Assembly (NCBI GenBank): GCA_030849075.1
Contig: JASAOO010003459.1
Location: 1 to 64,000, forward strand
Reading direction: 5' to 3'
Origin: Zelonia costaricensis
Lineage: Eukaryota > Euglenozoa > Kinetoplastea > Trypanosomatida > Trypanosomatidae
Length of the DNA stretch: 64,000 nt
The translations under genes were made by a program, and so were the position numbers. The notes beneath the pieces are model-generated. The model was not told the origin of the DNA. It was given only the letters and a program-made list of their open reading frames with translations, and made no database searches. Of the stretch, positions 17,235 through 30,153 are shown in pieces (position 1 is the stretch's first letter; the number at the start of each line of letters is the position of its first letter).

Positions 17235-18209
17235 TCACCGATCCATGCTGCCCATAATCTGCGCAATGCGGACGAAAATGTTGATCACGTTGAGGAACAT
17301 CTGCATCGCATCCTGCACGTGATCCCCAGCCCCGCAGCGGGCCCGCTCAATCATGGCCTGTGTGTCCACCGACACCATCAGGGAGAAGATGGCGAGGCCG
17401 CCGTAGAGGATGATGGAGTGGGCAATCGCCGTCGGGTAGAAGATGTTGATGAGCGAGATGGCCACCATGCCGATGAGCGCGCCGAAGAGCGGCCCCTGCC
17501 ACGCCACCATCGAGGCCCGCGGGGCGAGGTAGGCGGCGGCACTGAAGCCACCAAAGACGGCCGCGGTGAGGATGATGGAGGTGGACAGCACCCCCTTCAT
17601 GCTCGTCATGAGCACCAGCGGCGCAATCGCCATCCCCTCCAGCAGCGCAAACGAGAAGAAGAGGCCCAGCTTCAGGGACGGGTTCGCCGGCGGGGCGAAG
17701 GAGAGCCAGAGAAGCGGCACAAAGCCGCCGACCATCGGGAACCAGTACGGGATCGCCCGGCCCATGGGCGTCGCCACCATCAGGAAGCTGCCCAGGCCAG
17801 CCGTCAAGCACGCGCAGCCCAGCAGCGTGTAGACACGCGCAAGGTGCTGGCGCACGTACGGGGTGAGGCTGTCGGCCTGGCTGCCACCGCCGCTGCTGCT
17901 GCCAGACCAGTTCATGGGGCTCGTCTGACTCTGCACGTCGTCGCGGCCCTGCACCCGCATGCGCTGCGCACGCGTCACTGTCGCGTACTCGCGCAGCGCA
18001 CTCTGCAGGGCGAGGGGTGCGGCGGCCGCGGCGGTGGTGGTGGTGGTGGGGGCGAAGCGGGCCGCGCACGGGAGCACACGACGGCACGTCGCAGCGGGGG
18101 CCTGCGTGCACAAGCGGGGCGCAGGCAGGCCGCTCATGTGCCGCAGAGAGAGTCGCATGGCGGAGGCGACGGCGCCGGCGCCCATACGGCCCTGCATGCG
18201 GTGCAGCAT
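17235..18209 (-). CDS. Bax inhibitor-1/GHITM-like multi-pass membrane protein, probably mitochondrial
   Basis: A 324-aa protein. The first ~100 residues are Arg/Ala/Ser-rich with almost no acidic residues (RLSLRHMSGLPAPRLC, CRRVLPCAARFAP), as in a mitochondrial presequence. Residues ~120-320 are hydrophobic with about seven membrane segments, among them LLGCACLTAGLGSFLMVATP, SLKLGLFFSFALLEGMAIAP and ALIGMVAISLINIFYP. The C-terminal part VSVDTQAMIERA... DAMQMFLNVINIFVRIAQIM carries the Bax1-I signature (D-T-Q, then a last amphipathic segment). A mitochondrial presequence points to the GHITM/TMBIM5 branch of the inner membrane, implicated in cation exchange and cristae structure, rather than the ER branch. 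The start at 18209 is preferred; an ATG at 18185 is possible because the first AG after the main pyrimidine tract lies between them. Confidence 0.82.
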   Translation of the reverse strand: MLHRMQGRMGAGAVASAMRLSLRHMSGLPAPRLCTQAPAATCRRVLPCAARFAPTTTTTAAAAAPLALQSALREYATVTRAQRMRVQGRDDVQSQTSPMNWSGSSSGGGSQADSLTPYVRQHLARVYTLLGCACLTAGLGSFLMVATPMGRAIPYWFPMVGGFVPLLWLSFAPPANPSLKLGLFFSFALLEGMAIAPLVLMTSMKGVLSTSIILTAAVFGGFSAAAYLAPRASMVAWQGPLFGALIGMVAISLINIFYPTAIAHSIILYGGLAIFSLMVSVDTQAMIERARCGAGDHVQDAMQMFLNVINIFVRIAQIMGSMDR

Positions 18210-18810
18210 CGTGGGAGTGTTCGGTACGCGTTGACGGAGGAAGCGGGAGGAGGGGGCGGTGGGGGGGGGAGGTAGGTGGGAAAGGCGGAGGTGAAGGAGG
18301 CCGGATCGGAGGTGGGAGATGGGGGGGGGAGGCGGTACTGCGCGTATGTGCACGTGTGTGTGCGTGTGCGTGTGACGAGGAAAGGAGCGGGACCGAGAAG
18401 GGGTGGGGTGGGGGGGGGGACGATGGAGTTCAAAGGGGAGGGGTGTGGTGCTGGAGGCGTCCCTGTTGCTGGGTCGCTAGTCGCGCGGCCGACGTACTCC
18501 AAATGCGGACCTCTGCAACGCGCCTCTGCGGTGCGTCGCCGTGGTGCCACAAGAGAGCGAAGCCCTCCTCACCGCTCGCACGCTGCGGCACACTACAGCC
18601 GCAGACACACCACCATTGGAGGGAGCGTGGGCCCCCTCTCTTTCTCTCTCAGGAAAGGAGAATGCAGAAGTTCAAGGCGTTCAATACCGTGTTGATTAGT
18701 TACTCGAGAGGCGTCACAGCTCATCCTTCCAATGTGGGCTCGGGGCCGGGGTGGACGCGTAGGCCCCGCCTTTCCCCTCCCCACCACACCTCCGTGCCGC
18801 TGCGAGCACG
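18210..18810. other. Spacer between SURF6-like and BI-1-like genes
   Basis: About 600 bases. The left part is a long pyrimidine-rich stretch in the sense of transcription (plus-strand G/A-rich 18236-18331), with an AG at 18339-18338 and no other AG before the start at 18209. The right part is the 3'UTR of the SURF6-like gene. No CDS seen. Confidence 0.6.
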
Positions 18811-19641
18811 TTACCGGCGCTTTCCACCACCGCTGCCGCCCTTGCGCTGCGACGTCTGCTTGCCGCCAGCGGAGCGCTGCTTCTTGGCGCCCGACTTCTT
18901 ACCACCACCACCACCACCACCGCTGCCGCCGCCGCCCTTCCCCGCCTTCTTCTTGGTGGACCCCGACGCTGCGGACCCCTTGCCGCCACCGCCCCCAGAG
19001 GCCTCGCGCTTCTTTTCCTTCGCGCGCACCTTCGCCTCCTTCCGCGCCTTCATCGTCTGCTTCTGGATCGAGCGGTCCTTCACGATGTTCTCGACGGAGT
19101 CCTCGAGGTGCTTGATGCGCTTCGCCCACCGCTTCGCCGACTGGCGCTTCTTGCTGCGCCGCTTCGCAAGCGCCTTCGCAATTCGGTGGGGGTCGTCTTT
19201 CACCTTCAGACCCGCCGCCCGCTGCATGGCGGCGGAGATGAGGTCCTCGCTGCGCAGCTCGGCCCCCTGGCGCGTGTGCAGCATGTCGGCGTGCGTGGCC
19301 GCCTTGCGGCGTGCCTGCCGCAGCAGCGACGACAGCTCCCGCACACCACCGCCGCGCTTGCCGATGCTCTTCATCTCCTGGAACTCGAAGTTGCCAAAGG
19401 AGATGTCGAGCGGGACGACGTGCTTGATGGGCTGCGTCATGCGGTCCTCGAGCGACACCGTGGGTCGCTTGGGCTCCTTCTTGCGCGACCACGACCGCGG
19501 CGAGCGGCCGCCGCGCTGTGGGGCGAAGGGGCGGGCCCCGTGGTAGGCCGCTGCGGAGCCATCCCGACTGCCGCCGCGGCCGCCGCCGCGGCCGCCGTAG
19601 CCGCCGTTCGGCTTGGGGCTGCAACCTCTTCTATCTTTCAT
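18811..19641 (-). CDS. SURF6/Rrp14-like nucleolar ribosome-biogenesis protein
   Basis: A 276-aa, strongly basic protein. A Gly/Arg-rich N-terminus (GGYGGRGGGRGGSRDG) precedes a conserved motif around LEDRMTQPIKHVVPLDISFG. The centre (RAAGLKVKDDPHRIAKALAK, then RRSKKRQSAKRWAKRIKHLE and MKARKEAKVRAKEKKREA, residues ~150-230) has the long Lys/Arg helix of the SURF6 family, including the K-V-x-D-D-P element. Yeast Rrp14 and animal SURF6 act in nucleoli in early 60S and 40S assembly. The last ~45 residues are Gly/Lys-rich low complexity. The ATG at 19641 is chosen; upstream in-frame sequence contains a Thr-His run from a CA repeat and is probably untranslated. Confidence 0.72.
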   Translation of the reverse strand: MKDRRGCSPKPNGGYGGRGGGRGGSRDGSAAAYHGARPFAPQRGGRSPRSWSRKKEPKRPTVSLEDRMTQPIKHVVPLDISFGNFEFQEMKSIGKRGGGVRELSSLLRQARRKAATHADMLHTRQGAELRSEDLISAAMQRAAGLKVKDDPHRIAKALAKRRSKKRQSAKRWAKRIKHLEDSVENIVKDRSIQKQTMKARKEAKVRAKEKKREASGGGGGKGSAASGSTKKKAGKGGGGSGGGGGGGKKSGAKKQRSAGGKQTSQRKGGSGGGKRR

Positions 19642-20126
19642 GAGAGCTGATACGACGAAGTCGCGTGTGTGTGTGTGTGTGTGAGAAGGAGTGAAGGGGT
19701 CGGTGCTGACCGTCCCTGCGTCGATGTCTGCGCTGCACTGAGGCCACACAGTGACGCGCGTAGGGGGGGGGGTTGGCGGAGGCGAGAAAGTGAAGCGGAG
19801 AAGGAATGGGCAAGAGGTGCATTCCAGGCAGTGGCGCGCAGCAGAGCCGGCGCGCCGCGCTCACGTGACTCGTCGCGACATGCGAGACGGAGAGGAAACG
19901 TAAAAGAAAACCGGCCTGTCGAGCCGCGTTGGACACCAGCCCGCGCGCGAGTGCCACGTGGTGTTCCCCCCGTCCTCACATTCACGCAAGACGGGTTCGA
20001 TTGTAGAGGACGAGGAAAGCGGGGGGGGGAAGGTGGGTGAAGGGTTTTACCTTCCCGATGCACACACGGAGCGCCGACGGCATCGCTGGACGTCACCCCC
20101 ATACCCCCCTCCCCCTTGTCCCTCTG
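19642..20126. other. Spacer between triple-AAGAB-like and SURF6-like genes
   Basis: About 485 bases with no gene seen. It has a GT run (19665-19682), which in the sense strand precedes an AG at 19648-19647 close to the SURF6-like start, and a G-rich stretch at 20020-20035. Confidence 0.55.
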
Positions 20127-23100
20127 TCACAGCACCCGCTCCAGCGCGAGGGCCAGCAGCGCCGCCTGCTCCTGCCGCCGTGCCTCCCCCAGGCGGTGGC
20201 CGTATCGCTTCATCTTTTCCGTCCACGCCAGCAGCTCCTGCTCCCGCGGCTTCGGCGCAGTGCCGGTGGCCCCCACGTCGTCGGCGTCGTCAGCGGGGTC
20301 AAGCGTGACACCCCGCACCGCTGCCACGGCGACACTGCGCAGCGTCTCTGGGTCGACAAGGAACCCCGGTGGCAGAGCACAGCCGATCGCCGGGGCGGCC
20401 CACCTCGCTTCATCAGCGTCTGCGCGCGGTGCGGCTGGCACCAAGACCGGCGCGGTATCTGATGCGGCAGCGACCTCCCCAGCTGGACAAGCCTTGCGCA
20501 CGCCGGCCTCTTGCACGGTTGGGGCTGCTGCTGTTGGCGCTGTGGGTGCAGGTGTTGGGGGCGGCGATGCCGCGCGTGCGCCTGGCTGCCGTCGACTCGT
20601 CATCGCCGTCGGAGAAGCGGGTGTGCGATGGGGCCAGAGGTGCTGCTCCACCGCCTCCCGCACACGCGCCGTCCCCTCCCCGCCGAAGTCGTCGCTCGGG
20701 GAGCGCGCAGGTGCGGCTGCGGTCCCGCGGGGTGCGGCGAAGACGACCTCGATGGGGACCCACCACTCCGGCTCCTCTCCGGCCACGTCGTGGGCCTGCG
20801 CAGCGACATCAGCGGGCCGGGGGCGTGTGAGGCGGTGGATCACTTCTTCCGCCTCCGCCGCGCGCCCCGCGTCCGCCGCGGTGACGTCGGTGAGGAGCAG
20901 CAGCAGCAGCGGCGAGTCGACCGCCTCTGCTGGGTTGCCTGGCGACGCGCCAAACTCCAAGTCGGTCGAGGCCCTACCCAGCCACTCTTCGCGCTGCTTG
21001 CGGGCCAGGGTGCGGAGAGCCTCCGCGAGCGAGGCACGCGTCGACGGCTCGCTTTCGCCAGCAGATGCGCCGTTGCCGGGCGAGGCCGCACCTGCCTCCT
21101 GTTGCAGCGCGGCAAGACTCGTCATCAGCACAAAGGCGTCGTACGCGTCGGCCCAGTGGATGAACTGCGGAGCTGGTGCAGGCACGGGGGCGGCGCAGTG
21201 GGAGGACCACCACGCCCACCACCCGCCAGCAACGTGCACCGCCACGCGGGCGTCGAAGTAAGACGTGATGACGTGGAGCTCCACCCCCTTCGCTGAAGCA
21301 GGATGTGTGCCGGCGGCGTCGTCTGCCATGGCAGCGGCGACAGACGGGGCCGCATGCCACACGTATGTGGAGTCTGTCCACGTAGTGGGAGTCTGATGCT
21401 CGGCCGCTGTGCGGCTGCAGCCGTCCTGGCGTTCGGGCTGTAGGGCTATGGGCAGCGCGGTGAGCACCTCTCGCATCCACGTCTCCTCCTCTACGGCACT
21501 CTGCCCATGCGCCAGCAGCAGCAGCGCGTTCCGCTGCCGATGCGTGGACTCGGGTTGGTCACGTGGGGCAGTTGTGGGGAGCGGCATGGAGGCTGTGCGA
21601 CTCCACTGCACGCAGTGCAGCAGCTCGTTCAGCCGGTCTAGACCGCGCGTTGCGGCCGTGTCGTCCTCGTCGCACACCACCGGCACTGACATCGCCTGCT
21701 GCCCTTCTTTCACGGCCTCCGCTGCAGCAGCTGAACGCGACGCTGCTGCTTCGCTGCACTCTGTGCACACCTCCATCACTTCCACGCCACGCGCGGCGCA
21801 GACCTGTGCCTCGTACTCGGTCAGCGAGACCGGTGCGCGGGAGGTGGACGATGTGCGCGCTGACACCGGGGAAGCTGGCGTGATGATGACCACCACAATG
21901 TCGCGGCAGCCGCGGCATCGCAGAGAGTCCAGGATTACTTCAAGGGGCGGGTACGCGGCACGGCCGTCCACGACGACGCCTGCCTCCGGCCCAGCGCCTC
22001 GTCCTCCGCGGCGGCGAGACGGTGGAGGGGGCGGCGTGGGTGGCCACAGCACCACCGCCGGCGCATCCTCGCACACTGGCTCCTCCGCCGCGTTGTGGCG
22101 GTGCACGAGGTGCTGCTCCCAGTAGCGATCGAGCAGCTCCTGCATGCGGCTGTCGAAGAAGGCGGTTTGCACGAGCCGCGGCTGCACCACCGCGGCGTAG
22201 TAGCGGTTCACAAGTACAACACGCGCTGCTGCTTCTGCTGCTGCTTCTCCTCCTCCTCTCGCCGCATCTGTTGTTGGTGCCGCGAAGATGGGGGAAGCTG
22301 GGCTTGTTGTCGCCCCCGACACGGGCGGAGTAACGACCGACGTGAAGAAGCGCAACCGGCGCCGCTGCGGTGCGGGACTGGCGTGCGCCAGTGATGACGT
22401 TGCACACTGCAGACCCCGAAGGACGTCCCACATCACCGCGGCGTCGTTGCCGACGACAACAAACCCGTTCGCGGGCGCCGTCGCGTCAAGCGTGGCGGGT
22501 GCCTGGCTTGTGGCGCTTGCAGGCTCCGTGCCGTCGTGGCGCGCACGGATGGGCCAGAGGGTGTTGCACAGCAGCTGGTAGAGGCGACTCGACCCGGCCA
22601 GCGGTGCCTGCAAGAGGCCGCGGCGGCCACACGCGGGGTCCACCACCTCCAGCGCGAGGCTCGCGTCACCACCCGCCGGCGGGGGTACACCGCTGGAGGT
22701 GTAGGGGTGCAGAGGCCCGTGGAAGACGCACTCGTACCCGTTCTCCACCGCGAAGTACTGCCAGCGGTCCTTGAGAGAGGGCGCCGCGGCGGCCGTCCCA
22801 CCAACGTCAGCGTCCACGTCTGCGGCGTCCCCGCAGAACACCATCACCACATGGAAGCAGCACGCGCCACGAGCAGAACCGCCGCCGCGTGGGAGTAGGT
22901 GCCACGGCACCACGGCAGGGTCCTGCGCGATGTGCACCAACAGCACACCACCGTACGCGCTCACGTCTGAGCCCTTTACTGCGTCGCTGCTGACTGCCGC
23001 GACCACAGCGCGGGACAGCCCCGCCAGTGCGTCCTCGGCGCTCTCGTGCACTGGTGCCCCGACGAGGAGCTCCAGCCGCGTGCCGAAGTACTTGTTGGTG

Positions 23101-23522
23101 ACCATCACCGAAGATGGAAAGCGGTGCAGGGCATACGAGGGAGGGTGGTGCTCCGGCGAAGGGGTGTGCGACGTCGAGGATGCGGCGGGCTGAGGCGCGG
23201 CGCCACCCCCCTCGCGCTCGTCTGCATCGCTGTCGGTGAGCCGCACGTAGCCGTCGCGTATGTGCTGGGCGGCTTCCGTGTCTGCCGAGGCGAGCTCGTG
23301 CGGTGGCGACGGCGATGTCGGTGCAGCCGCGATGGCCCTCCACGCGTCACACACCGCCCTCGCGGTGCCCCACTGCGCGAGCTCTGCCGCGCAGCACCAT
23401 GACAGCGGCGGAGACGAGTGCACTGACGCAGGACGCGATGCGGCTGCTGCAGAGCCGCTGTGTGGCAGGGGGTGCTGGAGGGACCCCAAGTGGCTCACAT
23501 CGAGGAGGTACACACACGCCAT
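20127..23522 (-). CDS. Large protein with three p34/AAGAB(Irc6)-like modules
   Basis: A 1131-aa protein that seems built from three copies of one module. Each has a hydrophobic strand followed by a short polar loop (GFVVVGNDAAVMWDVLRGL at ~353; NALLLLAHGQSAVEEETWM at ~665; poorly seen in copy 1). Next comes a [N/S]-[K/R]-Y-[F/Y] strand (VTNKYFGTRLELLVG ~140; VNRYYAAVVQPRLVQ ~434; ITSYFDARVAVHVAG ~751), then a hydrophobic strand. Each ends in a helix with a Trp: YQLLCNTLWPIRA ~318, LNELLHCVQWSRT ~630, VREAVEQHLWPHRT ~953. This is the plan of AAGAB/p34 and yeast Irc6, degenerate small-GTPase-like chaperones of clathrin adaptors AP1/AP2. The extreme C-terminus (EQELLAWTEKMKRYGHRLGE, then ALERVL) resembles the AAGAB C-terminal helices. 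The P-loop is not canonical. The start at 23522 follows a good tract. The assignment is by pattern and not confirmed. Confidence 0.6.
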   Translation of the reverse strand: MACVYLLDVSHLGSLQHPLPHSGSAAAASRPASVHSSPPLSWCCAAELAQWGTARAVCDAWRAIAAAPTSPSPPHELASADTEAAQHIRDGYVRLTDSDADEREGGGAAPQPAASSTSHTPSPEHHPPSYALHRFPSSVMVTNKYFGTRLELLVGAPVHESAEDALAGLSRAVVAAVSSDAVKGSDVSAYGGVLLVHIAQDPAVVPWHLLPRGGGSARGACCFHVVMVFCGDAADVDADVGGTAAAAPSLKDRWQYFAVENGYECVFHGPLHPYTSSGVPPPAGGDASLALEVVDPACGRRGLLQAPLAGSSRLYQLLCNTLWPIRARHDGTEPASATSQAPATLDATAPANGFVVVGNDAAVMWDVLRGLQCATSSLAHASPAPQRRRLRFFTSVVTPPVSGATTSPASPIFAAPTTDAARGGGEAAAEAAARVVLVNRYYAAVVQPRLVQTAFFDSRMQELLDRYWEQHLVHRHNAAEEPVCEDAPAVVLWPPTPPPPPSRRRGGRGAGPEAGVVVDGRAAYPPLEVILDSLRCRGCRDIVVVIITPASPVSARTSSTSRAPVSLTEYEAQVCAARGVEVMEVCTECSEAAASRSAAAAEAVKEGQQAMSVPVVCDEDDTAATRGLDRLNELLHCVQWSRTASMPLPTTAPRDQPESTHRQRNALLLLAHGQSAVEEETWMREVLTALPIALQPERQDGCSRTAAEHQTPTTWTDSTYVWHAAPSVAAAMADDAAGTHPASAKGVELHVITSYFDARVAVHVAGGWWAWWSSHCAAPVPAPAPQFIHWADAYDAFVLMTSLAALQQEAGAASPGNGASAGESEPSTRASLAEALRTLARKQREEWLGRASTDLEFGASPGNPAEAVDSPLLLLLLTDVTAADAGRAAEAEEVIHRLTRPRPADVAAQAHDVAGEEPEWWVPIEVVFAAPRGTAAAPARSPSDDFGGEGTARVREAVEQHLWPHRTPASPTAMTSRRQPGARAASPPPTPAPTAPTAAAPTVQEAGVRKACPAGEVAAASDTAPVLVPAAPRADADEARWAAPAIGCALPPGFLVDPETLRSVAVAAVRGVTLDPADDADDVGATGTAPKPREQELLAWTEKMKRYGHRLGEARRQEQAALLALALERVL

Positions 23523-25120: not shown

Positions 25121-25915
25121 TCATGGCGACGTGGTGAACACCGCCCGTCTGAACTGCGCTCGCTTGTCGGCCGCCAGCTCGTCCCGCACGACGCAGGCGG
25201 GCCACCGCACCGTGCAGCGCATGCACTTCTCGGGCACCATGTCCGGCATCAGCGCCCCCGTCGTGTTCGAGTCTGAGTACGGGGCGCTGTGCGGTCGCAT
25301 CCCTTGCGAGCGCGCGGATTGGGTCATGACGCTGCGCACCGTCGCACCAAGGTTTACGGGGCTGGCGACGACGCGGACGCTGGTGGCGGAGGTGACTGGG
25401 GAGCGCTGGCCCACCCGCGGCAGCGACGGCTCCAGAGACGAGTTTGACGACAAGTTTGAGCGGGTGAGGTGAAGAATCGGTGCCGAGTCCGCTCGCGTCC
25501 GCGCACTCCCGGCGGTGCGCACGCGCTGCGCGACCTCCTCCCTGTGCCGCGCCGCCGTCGCCTCGTGCTGCAGCTGGTTGTCGAACTCGTTGCGGCCGCG
25601 GAAGTACGGCGCAGCCGGGTAGTGCACCCCGAGCGTCTCAGGCAGGCGGTGGGTGTTGTGGTTCACGGATGAGTACAGGAAGGGCCTGTACGCGCCGTCG
25701 CACTGCTCCTGCGCGTGCGGGGACGCGCGAAGCATGGCGCGGCGGCTGCGCTGCTTCGGCGGCCGCGGTGATGGCGCGGCCTCAACGCCGGAGGGGTCCA
25801 CCGCGGGCGACGACTCTGCTGCCCTCACGTCCGCGTCATCGGCGAGGGGCACGTGTTGGCTTCGCAGGTACTGGTGGGCGAGCAGGAGCTGCATGGGAGA
25901 CCTGCTGGACGCCAT
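25121..25915 (-). CDS. Hypothetical conserved-looking protein, 264 aa
   Basis: Not recognised. It looks coding rather than a shadow because composition is mixed and non-repetitive. Clear blocks are MASSRSPMQLLLAHQYLRSQ at the start, FLYSSVNHNTHRLPETLGVH and YFRGRNEFDNQLQHEATAAR in the middle (residues ~85-130), and CMRCTVRWPACVVRDELAAD near the C-terminus. No signal peptide, membrane segment or catalytic motif is visible. The Tyr/Phe/Asn-rich middle motif recalls short repeats in microtubule- or flagellum-associated proteins, but that is only an impression. The ATG at 25915 is the first ATG; one GTG codon precedes it in frame. Confidence 0.6.
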   Translation of the reverse strand: MASSRSPMQLLLAHQYLRSQHVPLADDADVRAAESSPAVDPSGVEAAPSPRPPKQRSRRAMLRASPHAQEQCDGAYRPFLYSSVNHNTHRLPETLGVHYPAAPYFRGRNEFDNQLQHEATAARHREEVAQRVRTAGSARTRADSAPILHLTRSNLSSNSSLEPSLPRVGQRSPVTSATSVRVVASPVNLGATVRSVMTQSARSQGMRPHSAPYSDSNTTGALMPDMVPEKCMRCTVRWPACVVRDELAADKRAQFRRAVFTTSP

Positions 25916-26880
25916 CACGCCGAGCTCGCCGCGGGTTTAGCGGCGGAGTTTTAACGGCTTTGGGGAGAATAGGGAATCCAGCTACGATGATATACGGGAG
26001 GAGTAGGTGTGGTACGTGGAATAGACGAAGCTCAGTTCTTGGCTGTCGCCTGTGGGTGTGCGCGCGCGTGTGTGTGTGGAACAGAGGGGAAGGGCGGGAG
26101 ACGGGGTAAGGAGAGTGAGGGACAGACACGAACGGAGCGAAGCAGCAGTCCTCTGCCGCGGAGCACACTTAAAAACACACACACACACACAGACAACGAG
26201 CCCTTGCGTTGGGGGCGAGGAGGGGAGGCGTGCATGTGTTTCCATCAGCGACTCGGCAGCCGGTTTCTTGCGTGAGAATGTGTGCACCGCAAAGGCAAAC
26301 AGGAAAGGGAGGGGGGAGGAAGAAGGGGCGAGCGCGAGCGGGCGACTCTCGAGACGGGCGGAGCAGACGCTGAATCGCCGTGCGTATGTGTTCGACTCTA
26401 AACGACAGAAGCAGTACTTCTTGCCTCCCCCAAGCCCGAAAGCACAAAGCGGCGAGACCCTCGGAACTGCGTCGTGGATGACCTCTCGGCGGCGGCGGCG
26501 GCGGCGGGGGGGGGGGAGGGGAAGGTGTGGGCCTGTACGATGCATGTTTGCGTTACATCGTGCACGAGACGCCGGGAGGGGGGGGGAGGCGATCCACGAA
26601 CGCGGGGTTGCGACAACCATCGAGATAGAGTACGGATGTGGCGTGACGAAGGGGGGGGGGGTGGTGGTGGTGGGTGCGCCTCACCCACATGGAGGCAGCA
26701 AGAGAGGAGCACGGAGCCGTACGCAGCGCTTGCGCACAGCGCGTCCCTCACGTGGTTGCTATCGTGCGTCTGCGCGCGTCTAGAGCCGCTAACCAACGAA
26801 TGAGGTGTCTGTGTGTGAGTGTGTAGAGGGAGGGGGGGAGGTGGAGCGAGAGGAGCCGCAGCGGGGATGCCGTGTGCCGC
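25916..26880. other. Spacer upstream of the 264-aa gene
   Basis: About 965 bases with no supported gene. It contains a GT run at 26065-26078, a CA run at 26175-26191, and G runs on the plus strand near 26505-26522 and 26650-26661. It carries the 3'UTR of the 1090-aa coiled-coil gene on the right and the 5' region of the 264-aa gene on the left. Confidence 0.55.
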
Positions 26881-29800
26881 TCACGGCAGGGCGGCAAGCT
26901 TCTCCTCGACAGCGCGCAGGCAACGCTCCAGCTCCGCGCGCTTCTGGTTCACGTCGTTGTAGTAGTGCTCCAGCGCGTCGTCCTCCTCCTGCTGCTCAAT
27001 GTGCAGCTCCTCCAGCGCACGGTTCAGCGCCTCGGACTCCTCGGCGTCGTTGTCCACCGTATCACCGCTGTCCTGCGGCGCGTGGTGGTGGCGGATCGCG
27101 TCCGTTGCGTCAGGGTCCTCGCGGGACATGGACGGGGCCGAGCTGCTCTTGGCGCTGTGCACGGAGAGGTTCACCCGCAGCGTGTCCCGCTCGCGCCGCC
27201 GCTGCCGCCGCGCCGCGTCGTGCCGCGAGGTCACTGCTTGCACCTCCTGCTCGAGCCGCTCCGCGTGCCGCAGGATGTCGCGCCGCGCCGCCTCCAGCCG
27301 CGAGCGCGGGGCTGTGGCGGTCGGCGAGGTGCAGGAGGAGGGGGTTGAGAGCGCGGCGGTGGCTGCGGCATCGTCGTCGCCGTCGTCTGCGCCGCCGCCG
27401 CACACCTGCGACGTCGCGGCGTCCACGTCGCTGTCAGCGTGTCCAGCGTCGTGCGGCGCCGTGAGAGGCGGCACGTCGTCGTCGCAGTCGGGGCTGGTGG
27501 ACGCGCCACCGCGCGCTGCGGGCCCAGCGCCGACGGGAGCGGCGCGGTCGAGTTCGTTGTCCGTCTCGCCGCCCTCGCTGTAGCCGTCGCGGCCTTCGTC
27601 TGCGACTCTGCGCATCGCGACTGCTGCCGCTGCCGCGCCGGTGCGCCCCCTGCCGCCCACGGTGCGTGGGGGCAGCGGGGCCGGCGTGCGATCGAGGGAG
27701 AGCTGGCGCACCGGGGAAAGCGTCCGCGTGAAGGAGCGCTGCGGCTGCGAGAAGTTGGCGCCGTCGTCGCCCTGGCCAGCAGCGCCGGCACCACCGCCGC
27801 CGTAGTTGGTGTCTTCACTCATGCGTGATACGTCCACGCTGGTGAGGGAGCCAGGGGCGGCGACCCGCGCGTGAGGCGGGTCCTGCTGCTGTTGCGAGGT
27901 GCGTGCCGCGGGGGGACGCTGCAGTGGTGGTGCCTCGTCCGCCCACCGCATCGAGTGCAGGGACGAGAGCGACGAGGAGTGCGACGGGCCGTACGAGTGC
28001 TGCTGCTTCACAGGGGTGGTCGCGGCGGCGAGGTGAGCGCTTCGCTCGTCGTAGCCCATCCACACACCAGCACCCACCAACTGCGCCGCACCGCTCCCAC
28101 CACCACCACCACCACCGCTGTTGTTGCTGTAGCTGCCGCCGTTGACGCTGTCGGCGCTGGTGCGGCGGGGCGCGGTGGCGGCAGCGGCTAGGGCCAGCGG
28201 CGCACCGTAGCGCACGTCGCCGTGAGGGACACCGTGCCGCTCCTCGCTGACGCCGCCCCCTCTCAACCCGAAACCGGTGGACAAGGCGGAGGGGGCGGCG
28301 GGAAGGCGAGCCACCAGCTGGACCGCAGGCCGTGCAACGGCAGAAGGCGGCCTCGAAGCCCCGGCGGCGATGCGCAGCGGTGGCTCGCTTGTCTGCTGTG
28401 CCTCGGCCGCGTTGCCGCTGCTGTCACGGGCGCCGTTGCGCTGCTGCCCCCCGCGGAGGGGCGAGCGAGAGCTGCGCAGCTCCTCCAGCTCCCGCTCCAC
28501 CACCCGCAATTTTGCGTCGAGGTGGTCGTTGACGAGGTGCAGCTGCCACATGCGCTTCGTGGTGTCCTTGAGCTGCTGCTGCAGGGCGCCGTGCGCCGCG
28601 TCGTCTGCGCCGGGCGGGGCTACCGCAGCGGCCGCCGGGCGGGTGGCGTCGTGCTCTGCGCCGCGCAGGCGCTCCTCGGCCTGCCGTGCCCGCTGCTCGA
28701 GCTCTTCCATCCGGACGCCGTGCCGCGCCACGAGCTGGGCGAGCGCCCGCTCCTGCGCCGCCTGGAGGTCCTGCTGCTGCTCCTGGAGCAGTGCGTGCGT
28801 GCGCTGCTTGGCGTGCGCCAGCTCACGCGTGAGGTGCGCGTTGTGGGCGGCCAGCCGTTCGAGGGCGGCGTCGCCGTGCCCGTTGAGCTGGAGCCGCGGA
28901 GGGGCGGCGTGGTCAGCGGGGGAGCGTGACGACAACGCTGCCGACGCTGCGCGAGGTGCGGCGGGCGACTTCATCAGAGGCGGTGGAAGCGGCTCTACGG
29001 GGGCGGCCTCCCCCACCGCCGAGGGCTCCGGTGCCGGCCAGCGGCTCCGCCGCGGCGCGCGCCCGTTTGCAGCGGCAGCGGTGGTGGTGGTGTGGGCGGC
29101 AGAGGCGAGATGGTCCCACAGGACCTGCAGGTGACTCCGCTCCGCGCTCTCCTGCTCGACGAGCAGTCGAGCAGTCCAGAGGTACTCGCCCATGATGCCC
29201 TCGCGCTCGCGCTGGTGCTGCTGCAGCGTGATCTCGTCCATGTAGGCCGCCTGCGCGGCCAGCGTCTTGGCGAGGCGCGACTCCATGACGGTGTACCGCC
29301 GCTGCAGCTGCACTATATCGGCCGCCCGCGACGGCGGGGGCGGCGGCGTCTTGACCGCACCGTCCGAGGTGGCGTCTTGCTCGACTGCGTCGAGGTCATC
29401 GCTGGAGCCGGCTTGCACAGCGGGGGCGCGGGTGCGGGAGGGCGGCGCGGAGAAGTGGCGCTGCTGCAGCGCCTCGAGCTCGAGCAGGGCGGCCATGCAC
29501 GCGCTACGGTAGCGCTGCAGTGCGTCGATTAGCTGCACCGAGCTGCAGCCCGGCGCCGCGCCATCAACGCTTGCCCGCCTCTGTGTGCTGCTGGAGTCGG
29601 GCCCCGCCGCGCGCATCAACACCTGCTCCGTCTCCTGCATCGTCCGCTCAAGGCGACGGCACACAGCCGAGACGTGGTGCCGCCACGAGACGCCGTCGAG
29701 GCTGTGGGGTGGAGGGGATGCCTCACGGGGTGCGGTGGCGACGCTGACGAGGGTGCGTGGTGGACGCTGGCTGGACGGCTGGTGGGGGTGGTGGTTGTGG

Positions 29801-30153
29801 GCCTCGAATGCGGTGAAGCGTAGCCGCGGTGTCCCGGTCCCCGCCGCTTGGGAGGCGAGAAGCGGCGATGTCGCGTCGTGGCGCGGGGGAGAGTCCGAAT
29901 AGGAGCTCGCCTGCGCAGGTGCAGCAGTAGCAGCAGTGGCAGCGGCGCCGCCGCCCCGCTGCGTAGACAGCGTTGATGCTGCAGCTACATCCGTCATCGT
30001 TGTCGGAAGCGCTGACGTGGAGAGCAGTGGCCGCGCGGCATTGCCGTGCGACGCCGCTGCATGCCCGGTGATGTAGTGAGGACTCGCGAGGTGCGTGATG
30101 CCGCTGCGCCGCGGTGGCGTAAAGCCGCGCTGCCGAGGCGCACTCGAGTGCAT
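26881..30153 (-). CDS. Coiled-coil protein, 1090 aa, function unknown
   Basis: Not recognised by family. The N-terminal ~180 residues are disordered (Ser/Ala/Pro-rich). Coiled-coil segments follow: ~278-353 (ADIVQLQRRYTVMESRLAKT, REGIMGEYLWTARLLVEQES), ~423-501 (ALERLAAHNAHLTRELAHAK and a Gln/Glu-rich continuation) and ~518-561 (LQQQLKDTTKRMWQLHLVND). A long Ser/Gly/Pro/Asp-rich linker occupies ~565-940. Coil returns at ~954-991 and at the C-terminus (~1041-1088, HIEQQEEDDALEHYYNDVNQ, then LRAVEEKLAALP). Such architecture is typical of trypanosomatid cytoskeletal, basal-body or flagellar proteins, but nothing here fixes the location. The start at 30153 is the first in-frame ATG; MTDVAAASTL further in is an alternative. 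Confidence 0.78.
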   Translation of the reverse strand: MHSSAPRQRGFTPPRRSGITHLASPHYITGHAAASHGNAARPLLSTSALPTTMTDVAAASTLSTQRGGGAAATAATAAPAQASSYSDSPPRHDATSPLLASQAAGTGTPRLRFTAFEAHNHHPHQPSSQRPPRTLVSVATAPREASPPPHSLDGVSWRHHVSAVCRRLERTMQETEQVLMRAAGPDSSSTQRRASVDGAAPGCSSVQLIDALQRYRSACMAALLELEALQQRHFSAPPSRTRAPAVQAGSSDDLDAVEQDATSDGAVKTPPPPPSRAADIVQLQRRYTVMESRLAKTLAAQAAYMDEITLQQHQREREGIMGEYLWTARLLVEQESAERSHLQVLWDHLASAAHTTTTAAAANGRAPRRSRWPAPEPSAVGEAAPVEPLPPPLMKSPAAPRAASAALSSRSPADHAAPPRLQLNGHGDAALERLAAHNAHLTRELAHAKQRTHALLQEQQQDLQAAQERALAQLVARHGVRMEELEQRARQAEERLRGAEHDATRPAAAAVAPPGADDAAHGALQQQLKDTTKRMWQLHLVNDHLDAKLRVVERELEELRSSRSPLRGGQQRNGARDSSGNAAEAQQTSEPPLRIAAGASRPPSAVARPAVQLVARLPAAPSALSTGFGLRGGGVSEERHGVPHGDVRYGAPLALAAAATAPRRTSADSVNGGSYSNNSGGGGGGGSGAAQLVGAGVWMGYDERSAHLAAATTPVKQQHSYGPSHSSSLSSLHSMRWADEAPPLQRPPAARTSQQQQDPPHARVAAPGSLTSVDVSRMSEDTNYGGGGAGAAGQGDDGANFSQPQRSFTRTLSPVRQLSLDRTPAPLPPRTVGGRGRTGAAAAAVAMRRVADEGRDGYSEGGETDNELDRAAPVGAGPAARGGASTSPDCDDDVPPLTAPHDAGHADSDVDAATSQVCGGGADDGDDDAAATAALSTPSSCTSPTATAPRSRLEAARRDILRHAERLEQEVQAVTSRHDAARRQRRRERDTLRVNLSVHSAKSSSAPSMSREDPDATDAIRHHHAPQDSGDTVDNDAEESEALNRALEELHIEQQEEDDALEHYYNDVNQKRAELERCLRAVEEKLAALP

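What the first reader, a model, noticed from the sequence alone, without database searches (positions are those of the whole stretch)
20127..23522. One protein with three AAGAB/p34 (Irc6)-like modules in tandem
The same order of elements occurs three times: a hydrophobic strand with polar loop, a K/R-Y-F/Y strand (NKYFGTRLELL, NRYYAAVVQPRL, TSYFDARVAVHV), a hydrophobic strand, then a helix ending in Trp (TLWPIRA, CVQWSRT, HLWPHRT). This matches the plan of AAGAB/p34, which chaperones AP1/AP2 clathrin adaptors and is normally a single module. The C-terminus also resembles the AAGAB helices. A triple version could assemble several adaptor complexes at once, or could be a scaffold. Seen: the internal periodicity. 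Known: the AAGAB family role. Inferred: homology and function.
Basis: partly seen in the sequence, partly recalled or inferred. Interest (0 to 1): 0.75.

Follow-up and report, generated by a model that had tools for sequence, protein, structure and literature searches.

The report
Triple-headed AAGAB-like adaptor chaperone
A gene in a single-celled organism related to Leishmania appears to encode a three-headed version of AAGAB, a helper protein that puts together the adaptor complexes of membrane traffic; the version known elsewhere has only one such head.

Summary
The minus-strand ORF 20127-23522 (1131 aa) has three copies of one plan: an aromatic pair at a strand, further strands, and a last helix ending in Trp. 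The pair and Trp are conserved in 13 homologues as far as their records reach (Leishmania, Porcisia, Novymonas, Leptomonas, two unnamed); 11 are named 'hypothetical', 2 have no name. The AAGAB reading is largely supported. Pfam's AAGAB family (PF10199) matches 12 of 14 members at E<=0.01, but no score shown reaches its cut-off. A vertebrate AAGAB G-domain profile aligns with each module and puts Tyr53-Tyr54 and Trp171 on the conserved pair and invariant Trp each time. Module 3, folded alone without AAGAB rows, resembles GTPases at low confidence. The C-terminus resembles the AAGAB C-terminal domain. Human AAGAB is bi-handed (G domain binds sigma, C-terminal domain binds alpha/gamma), so the best reading is an adaptor-assembly chaperone with three G-domain hands and one C-terminal hand. 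Function is inferred. The genome holds sigma1 to sigma4. One G domain per sigma (1, 2, 4) is attractive, but Leishmania, reported to lack AP-4, keeps all three modules. Statistics are modest.

The parts
20127..23522 (-). whole gene, 1131 aa (P0001), stop codon 20127-20129
   Evidence: one match in own genome
22533..23522 (-). module 1 (about residues 1-330): AAGAB G-domain-like, with a poorly conserved insert about 67-129; start near residue 1 inferred
   Evidence: profile score 27.5 against AAGAB GD, 0 of 250 shuffles as high; strand/helix order in low-confidence model
23085..23096 (-). NKYF (143-146), BC-YY-like motif of module 1
   Evidence: K/R, Y, F each in 13 of 13 rows with a residue; aligned to AAGAB Y53-Y54
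22554..22556 (-). W323, end of last helix of module 1
   Evidence: invariant 14 of 14; aligned to AAGAB W171
21588..22475 (-). module 2 (residues 350-645): AAGAB G-domain-like; its last helix also matches the first positions of PF10199
   Evidence: profile score 20.3, 6 of 250 shuffles as high; PF10199 positions 2-20 at residues 625-643, a stretch that does not pass on its own
22197..22208 (-). NRYY (439-442), BC-YY motif of module 2; the only module with both Tyr
   Evidence: K/R 12 of 14, YY 14 of 14
21603..21605 (-). W640, end of last helix of module 2; an acidic DEDD stretch (11 of 14 rows) precedes the helix
   Evidence: Trp invariant 14 of 14
20613..21545 (-). module 3 (residues 660-970): AAGAB G-domain-like
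   Evidence: profile score 19.9, 4 of 250 shuffles as high; GTPase-like low-confidence model of residues 656-975
21255..21266 (-). TSYF (753-756), BC-YY-like motif of module 3, basic residue lost
   Evidence: Y 14 of 14; F 13 of 14; K/R only 2 of 14
20634..20636 (-). W963, end of last helix of module 3 (HLWPHR)
   Evidence: invariant 14 of 14
20412..20612 (-). variable Ala/Pro-rich linker (residues 971-1037)
   Evidence: mean identity to Leishmania 0.23 over residues 971-1036
20325..20411 (-). conserved stretch with W-x-x-P-x-x-GC-x-LP...DPETLRSV (residues 1038-1066), no counterpart identified
   Evidence: mean identity to Leishmania 0.73
20130..20243 (-). C-terminal domain (residues 1094-1131): helical hairpin like the AAGAB CTD, last residue L (12 of 14) or V (2 of 14)
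   Evidence: among the most conserved parts (0.70 to Leishmania); hhalign of residues 970-1131 to AAGAB CTD 20.7, 0 of 60 shuffles, reversed 18.0; core alone 16.7, 0 of 60, reversed 15.1; helices 1093-1111 and 1113-1130, block pLDDT 61-77

Best explanation
It is a highly divergent AAGAB/p34 relative in which the GTPase-like domain (GD) occurs three times in a row, followed by a linker and a single AAGAB-type C-terminal domain (CTD). Supported by calls: the three modules with their conserved Tyr/Phe pair and Trp, the CTD likeness, and the absence of Walker-A motifs. Inferred: it works as an assembly chaperone for AP adaptor complexes. The CTD takes up a large subunit (gamma or alpha type), the small sigma subunit pairs with it, and the half-complex is passed to a GD that holds sigma. 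Three GDs would give several sigma-binding hands, or one working hand (most likely module 2, which keeps K/R-Y-Y and an acidic stretch before the last helix) plus two that have drifted to other partners.
For: PF10199 matches 12 of 14 family members at E<=0.01, best 2.5e-06. In 5 of the 8 relatives scanned the best stretch runs from the last helix of module 3 to the C-terminal end (profile 3 to 93-96 of 98). The AAGAB GD profile aligns with M1, M2 and M3 over GD positions 6-176, 11-177 and 3-174 of 177; in each case Y53-Y54 and W171 fall on the conserved pair and the invariant Trp. The score was reached by 0, 6 and 4 of 250 column shuffles, the placement of pair and Trp by 15, 2 and 0 of 250, and both together by 0 of 250 each. 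Seven windows of a natural control family (adaptins of the same genome) scored only 10.1-14.0. Module 3 alone, predicted without AAGAB rows, gave mostly G proteins: 41 of 50 listed Foldseek titles name one and 45 of 50 VIA-align titles do, the best rows spanning model residues 6-311. No [GA]xxxxGK[ST] in 14 of 14 proteins. Partners exist: sigma1, sigma2, sigma3 and sigma4 by best PDB match, and 9 adaptin-type large subunits of which two are coatomer. The sigma2 residues that face AAGAB in the published model (R10, R60, R61, Y62, L101, D102) are present in its sigma1, sigma2 and sigma4 (interface from PMC12429027 section 10).
Confidence: 0.63

Rival explanations
1. A version within the best explanation: only one G domain (probably module 2) is a working sigma hand; modules 1 and 3 are degenerate copies that serve as spacers or rigid scaffold.
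For: Module 3 lacks the basic residue in 12 of 14 and is the least conserved module against the window (0.38 to Leishmania, 0.30 to the Leptomonas group). Only module 2 keeps K/R-Y-Y; a DEDD stretch before its last helix is present in 11 of 14.
Against: Among the seven Leishmania rows the modules are equally conserved (0.67 for residues 130-330, 0.71, 0.69), and all three keep Tyr and Trp, which is not what decay predicts.
Confidence: 0.35
2. A version within the best explanation: one G domain per adaptor. The three GDs hold sigma1, sigma2 and sigma4, the sigmas of the complexes that need AAGAB in human cells (AP-1, AP-2, AP-4; PMC12429027 section 12), sharing one CTD.
For: The genome has sigma1, sigma2 and sigma4 with the AAGAB-facing residues kept; sigma3 lacks R10.
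Against: Leishmania is reported to lack AP-4 (PMC4977521, passages) yet keeps three modules without extra divergence in any of them. sigma3 keeps the other facing residues too.
Confidence: 0.18
3. The modules are pseudo-GTPase domains of another origin, and the AAGAB likeness of motif and C-terminus is accidental or convergent; the protein is a scaffold unrelated to adaptor assembly.
For: All sequence scores are below curated or conventional thresholds; a spurious GD alignment scored as well; GTPase-like rows of module 3 belong to many families and none listed is AAGAB.
Against: PF10199 hits in 12 of 14 members and the joint placement of Tyr pair and Trp in all three modules would both have to be accidents.
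Confidence: 0.16

Closest known systems
[quoted passage not shown] PF10199)
   Same: Order GD - linker - CTD; BC-YY motif and Trp at the end of the last GD helix; no Walker-A motif; C-terminal helices with an R-x-x-Q/H-A pattern
   Different: Three GDs instead of one, 1131 aa against 315; a monkey AAGAB does not find the gene in its own genome; PF10199 under its cut-off; extra conserved W...GCxLP...DPETLRSV stretch before the CTD
Yeast Irc6
   Same: G-protein-like domain with BC-YY motif, Tyr-Trp contact, conserved hydrophobic last residue (PMC6418106, passages)
   Different: 237 residues with one G-like domain. [quoted passage not shown]
Leishmania, Leptomonas, Novymonas and Porcisia 'hypothetical' proteins P0003-P0013
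   Same: Homologues with three modules and CTD; the P0013 record lacks the start of module 1
   Different: 40-45% identical in alignment A1; no functional name in the text shown; PF10199 precomputed for 4 of the 13 hits
MEA1 (second bi-handed chaperone of AP1)
   Same: Works by two substrate-binding parts
   Different: Binds mu1 and beta1 (PMC12923701, passages); a PF06910 search of the own genome found nothing, but its controls did not ring either

Membership tests
AAGAB/p34 (PF10199) | Match to PF10199 above the curated cut-off of 32 bits | tested here: not met
   Window 20 bits; best of 8 relatives scanned 28.6 bits; 12 of 14 match at E<=0.01
[quoted passage not shown]
AAGAB/p34 (PF10199) | BC-YY motif and conserved Trp at end of the last GD helix | tested here: met
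   Three times; profile alignment places both, conserved in the family; second position is F in modules 1 and 3
AAGAB/p34 (PF10199) | No functional nucleotide-binding site | tested here: inconclusive
   No [GA]xxxxGK[ST] in 14 of 14; one [NT]KxD in 1 of 14, at residue 70 of P0008; nucleotide binding itself not testable
AAGAB/p34 (PF10199) | C-terminal adaptin-binding helical domain | tested here: inconclusive
   hhalign 20.7, 0 of 60 shuffles but reversed control 18.0; in 5 of 8 relatives the PF10199 match runs through it
AAGAB/p34 (PF10199) | Bipartite build: one GD and one CTD | tested here: not met
   Three GD-like modules
AAGAB/p34 (PF10199) | Binds AP large and sigma subunits and is needed for AP levels | not testable with these tools
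   needs experiment

The most novel reading that the evidence does not exclude
A four-handed adaptor-assembly chaperone: three pseudo-GTPase hands of different sigma preference on one chain with one large-subunit hand, so that one molecule can serve or coordinate assembly of several AP complexes. It would be an elaboration of the bi-handed AAGAB mechanism shared by Leishmania and its relatives.
Probability: 0.25. Interest if true: 0.8.

Novelty: new variant of a known kind. Interest (0 to 1): 0.56.

Why it matters
[quoted passage not shown] A conserved, unnamed AAGAB with three G domains in Leishmania and its relatives would show that the pathway reaches far beyond animals and can change the number of its hands. 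It gives the trypanosomatid field a candidate adaptor-assembly factor in lineages that have lost whole AP complexes (T. brucei AP-2, Leishmania AP-4; PMC4977521, passages).

Tried and rejected
Sequence search of the PDB with P0001 gave nothing; with the family profile A1 it gave mL77 (low-complexity match, E 0.027) and sohair (E 1.4) only, both discarded.

Search for shorter relatives (roughly 300-950 aa by the tool's length rule) with modules 1+2 found none at E<=10. This does not show absence in Trypanosoma or Bodo: only the 7996 candidates sharing most words were scored.

Own-genome search with PF10199 rang nowhere, the 14 controls included. With a monkey AAGAB (P0016) it gave three weak places, E 0.079, 0.15 and 0.26, not followed up. 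Neither search sees even the window gene, so a separate single-module AAGAB is not excluded. MEA1 and CCDC32 families: nothing, controls silent.

Module-to-module profile comparison was too weak to prove internal repeats. Shuffled columns proved too lenient as the only control, since the GD profile also 'found' the linker/CTD region; hence the motif-placement and natural-family controls. In one search my column numbering was off for modules 1 and 3, so its Trp reading there is wrong; one search replaces it.

The idea of one GD per AAGAB-dependent AP (1, 2, 4) was weighed and marked down because of Leishmania.
Full report
What is there. The minus-strand ORF at 20127-23522 encodes 1131 aa from ATG to stop in one frame. 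The own genome (28.67 Mb in 755 contigs, unnamed) gave one match. The database search found 13 homologues: 11 from Leishmania, Porcisia, Novymonas and Leptomonas, named hypothetical in the text shown, and 2 without a name (P0002, 92% identical, and P0014). That the organism is a trypanosomatid is inferred from these relatives; no phylogeny was run. Most relatives start MAxVYLLDVS-like, which agrees with the ATG. The sequence just upstream is rich in pyrimidine runs with an AG shortly before the ATG, which would fit a trans-splice acceptor (inference). A neighbour ORF at 25121-25918 matches the N-terminal extension of the L. donovani model P0004 (42% over 149 aa). This suggests that the gene order is shared with Leishmania and that P0004 joins two genes.

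Three modules. In the family alignment A1 (14 rows) the three Trp (W323, W640, W963) are invariant. The aromatic pairs are YF in 13 of 13, YY in 14 of 14, and YF in 13 of 14 with one YC. The low-confidence full-length model gives a similar order in each third of the protein (strand, helix, strands, alternating helices and strands, last helix), with a first strand at residues 2-8. Direct comparison of the modules with each other is weak: M1-M3 reached by 2 of 150 shuffles, M2-M3 by 9 of 150 and outscored by a reversed control, M1-M2 by 77 of 150.

AAGAB by Pfam. PF10199 is the only Pfam family found at E<=0.01, in 12 of 14 members. Over the nine proteins whose scores were shown it reaches 13.5 to 28.6 bits, under the 32-bit cut-off. 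In a primate AAGAB this model covers residues 174-312 of P0016, from the last GD helix to the CTD. In 5 of 8 trypanosomatid relatives it covers the corresponding span, from the last helix of module 3 to the end. In the window the best stretch is the last helix of module 2 (625-643, not passing on its own), and in P0013 and P0014 it also lies in the middle of the protein.

AAGAB by G-domain profile. I built a profile from 17 vertebrate AAGAB proteins out of 120 listed (593 found), a narrow set (71-93% to the first row). It aligned with the modules over GD positions 6-176, 11-177 and 3-174 of 177. Each alignment puts Tyr53-Tyr54 on the conserved aromatic pair and Trp171 on the invariant Trp. Scores 27.5, 20.3 and 19.9 were reached by 0, 6 and 4 of 250 shuffles. 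Placing the pair's second residue and the Trp on such columns occurred in 15, 2 and 0 of 250, and score and placement together in 0 of 250 each. Seven windows of a natural control family, nine adaptins of the same genome, scored 10.1-14.0. Against this: the GD profile also scored 25.4 against the linker/CTD region (0 of 250 shuffles), though without placing the Trp. And only in module 3 does the first AAGAB strand fall on the module's own first strand; in modules 1 and 2 the first 30-40 GD positions lie on variable sequence. So the scores alone do not prove homology; the shared placement of pair and Trp is the stronger point.

C-terminus. The AAGAB CTD profile aligned with the last residues of the family in the expected place: score 20.7, 0 of 60 shuffles, reversed control 18.0; core alone 16.7, 0 of 60, reversed 15.1. 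This is suggestive only; helical composition may explain part of it.

Nucleotide site. No [GA]xxxxGK[ST] motif in any of 14 proteins; one [NT]KxD in 1 of 14, at residue 70 of P0008 in the variable insert. Human AAGAB is described with a GTPase-like domain that binds sigma2 and a CTD that binds alpha, with hand-over between them (PMC12429027: abstract, sections 6, 10 and 12 read). In Irc6 the second Tyr of BC-YY hydrogen-bonds the conserved Trp (PMC6418106, passages). Here only module 2 keeps both Tyr; modules 1 and 3 have Phe at the second position.

Partners. The own genome encodes small subunits whose best PDB matches are AP-2 sigma (L002), AP-1 sigma (L003), AP-3 sigma (L004) and AP-4 sigma (L005). 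It also has 9 adaptin-type large subunits, of which L013 is gamma-COP and L017 beta-COP (the tenth hit, L019, is an armadillo-type protein). The sigma2 residues facing AAGAB (R10, R60, R61, Y62, L101, D102) are kept in sigma1, sigma2 and sigma4; sigma3 lacks R10 but keeps the others. On the chaperone side, the position of K52 is K/R in module 1 (13/13) and module 2 (12/14) but rarely in module 3 (2/14).

How it probably works. By analogy with AAGAB the CTD would capture a large adaptin, sigma would join, and the half-complex would be passed to a GD. Three GDs could mean different sigma specificities, higher capacity, or one active and two structural copies. The count of three fits sigma1, sigma2 and sigma4. 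But Leishmania is reported without AP-4 (PMC4977521, passages), and the seven Leishmania rows show no extra divergence in any module (0.67 for residues 130-330, 0.71, 0.69), so I do not adopt that mapping.

In print. Searches for AAGAB with trypanosom*, Irc6, pseudoGTPase, adaptin/trypanosomatid/p34/AP-2 (20 of 42 listed), the full protein name with Leishmania, PF10199 or the p34 name and AAGAB/Irc6/Leishmania/kinetoplastid/p34 (20 of 44 listed) listed no title or abstract start describing a kinetoplastid AAGAB or a multi-GD form. I saw listings, plus the passages or sections named above. Only open-licence papers are held.

Verdict. A divergent AAGAB-family protein with three tandem G-domain-like modules is likely; its role in adaptor assembly is a reasoned inference.

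Noticed in passing
17235-18353 (-): 372 aa ORF with a strong Bax-inhibitor-1 family match (PF01027, E 9e-43).
   Followed up: no
18811-19749 (-): 312 aa ORF with a SURF6 match (PF04935, E 2.7e-14).
   Followed up: no
25121-25918 (-): Homologue of the N-terminal extension of the L. donovani protein P0004, which is probably two neighbouring genes joined in annotation.
   Followed up: partly
26881-30153 (-): 1090 aa ORF with no Pfam family at E<=1; long Ser/Ala-rich and, by eye, coiled-coil-like stretches.
   Followed up: no
L005:1498-1980: An AP-4 type sigma subunit (best PDB match AP-4 sigma, E 5.4e-33), although Leishmania is reported to lack AP-4.
   Followed up: partly
20325-20411 (-): Conserved W-x-x-P-x-x-GC-x-LP...DPETLRSV stretch between linker and CTD, 0.73 identical to Leishmania; counterpart not found or searched for separately.
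   Followed up: no
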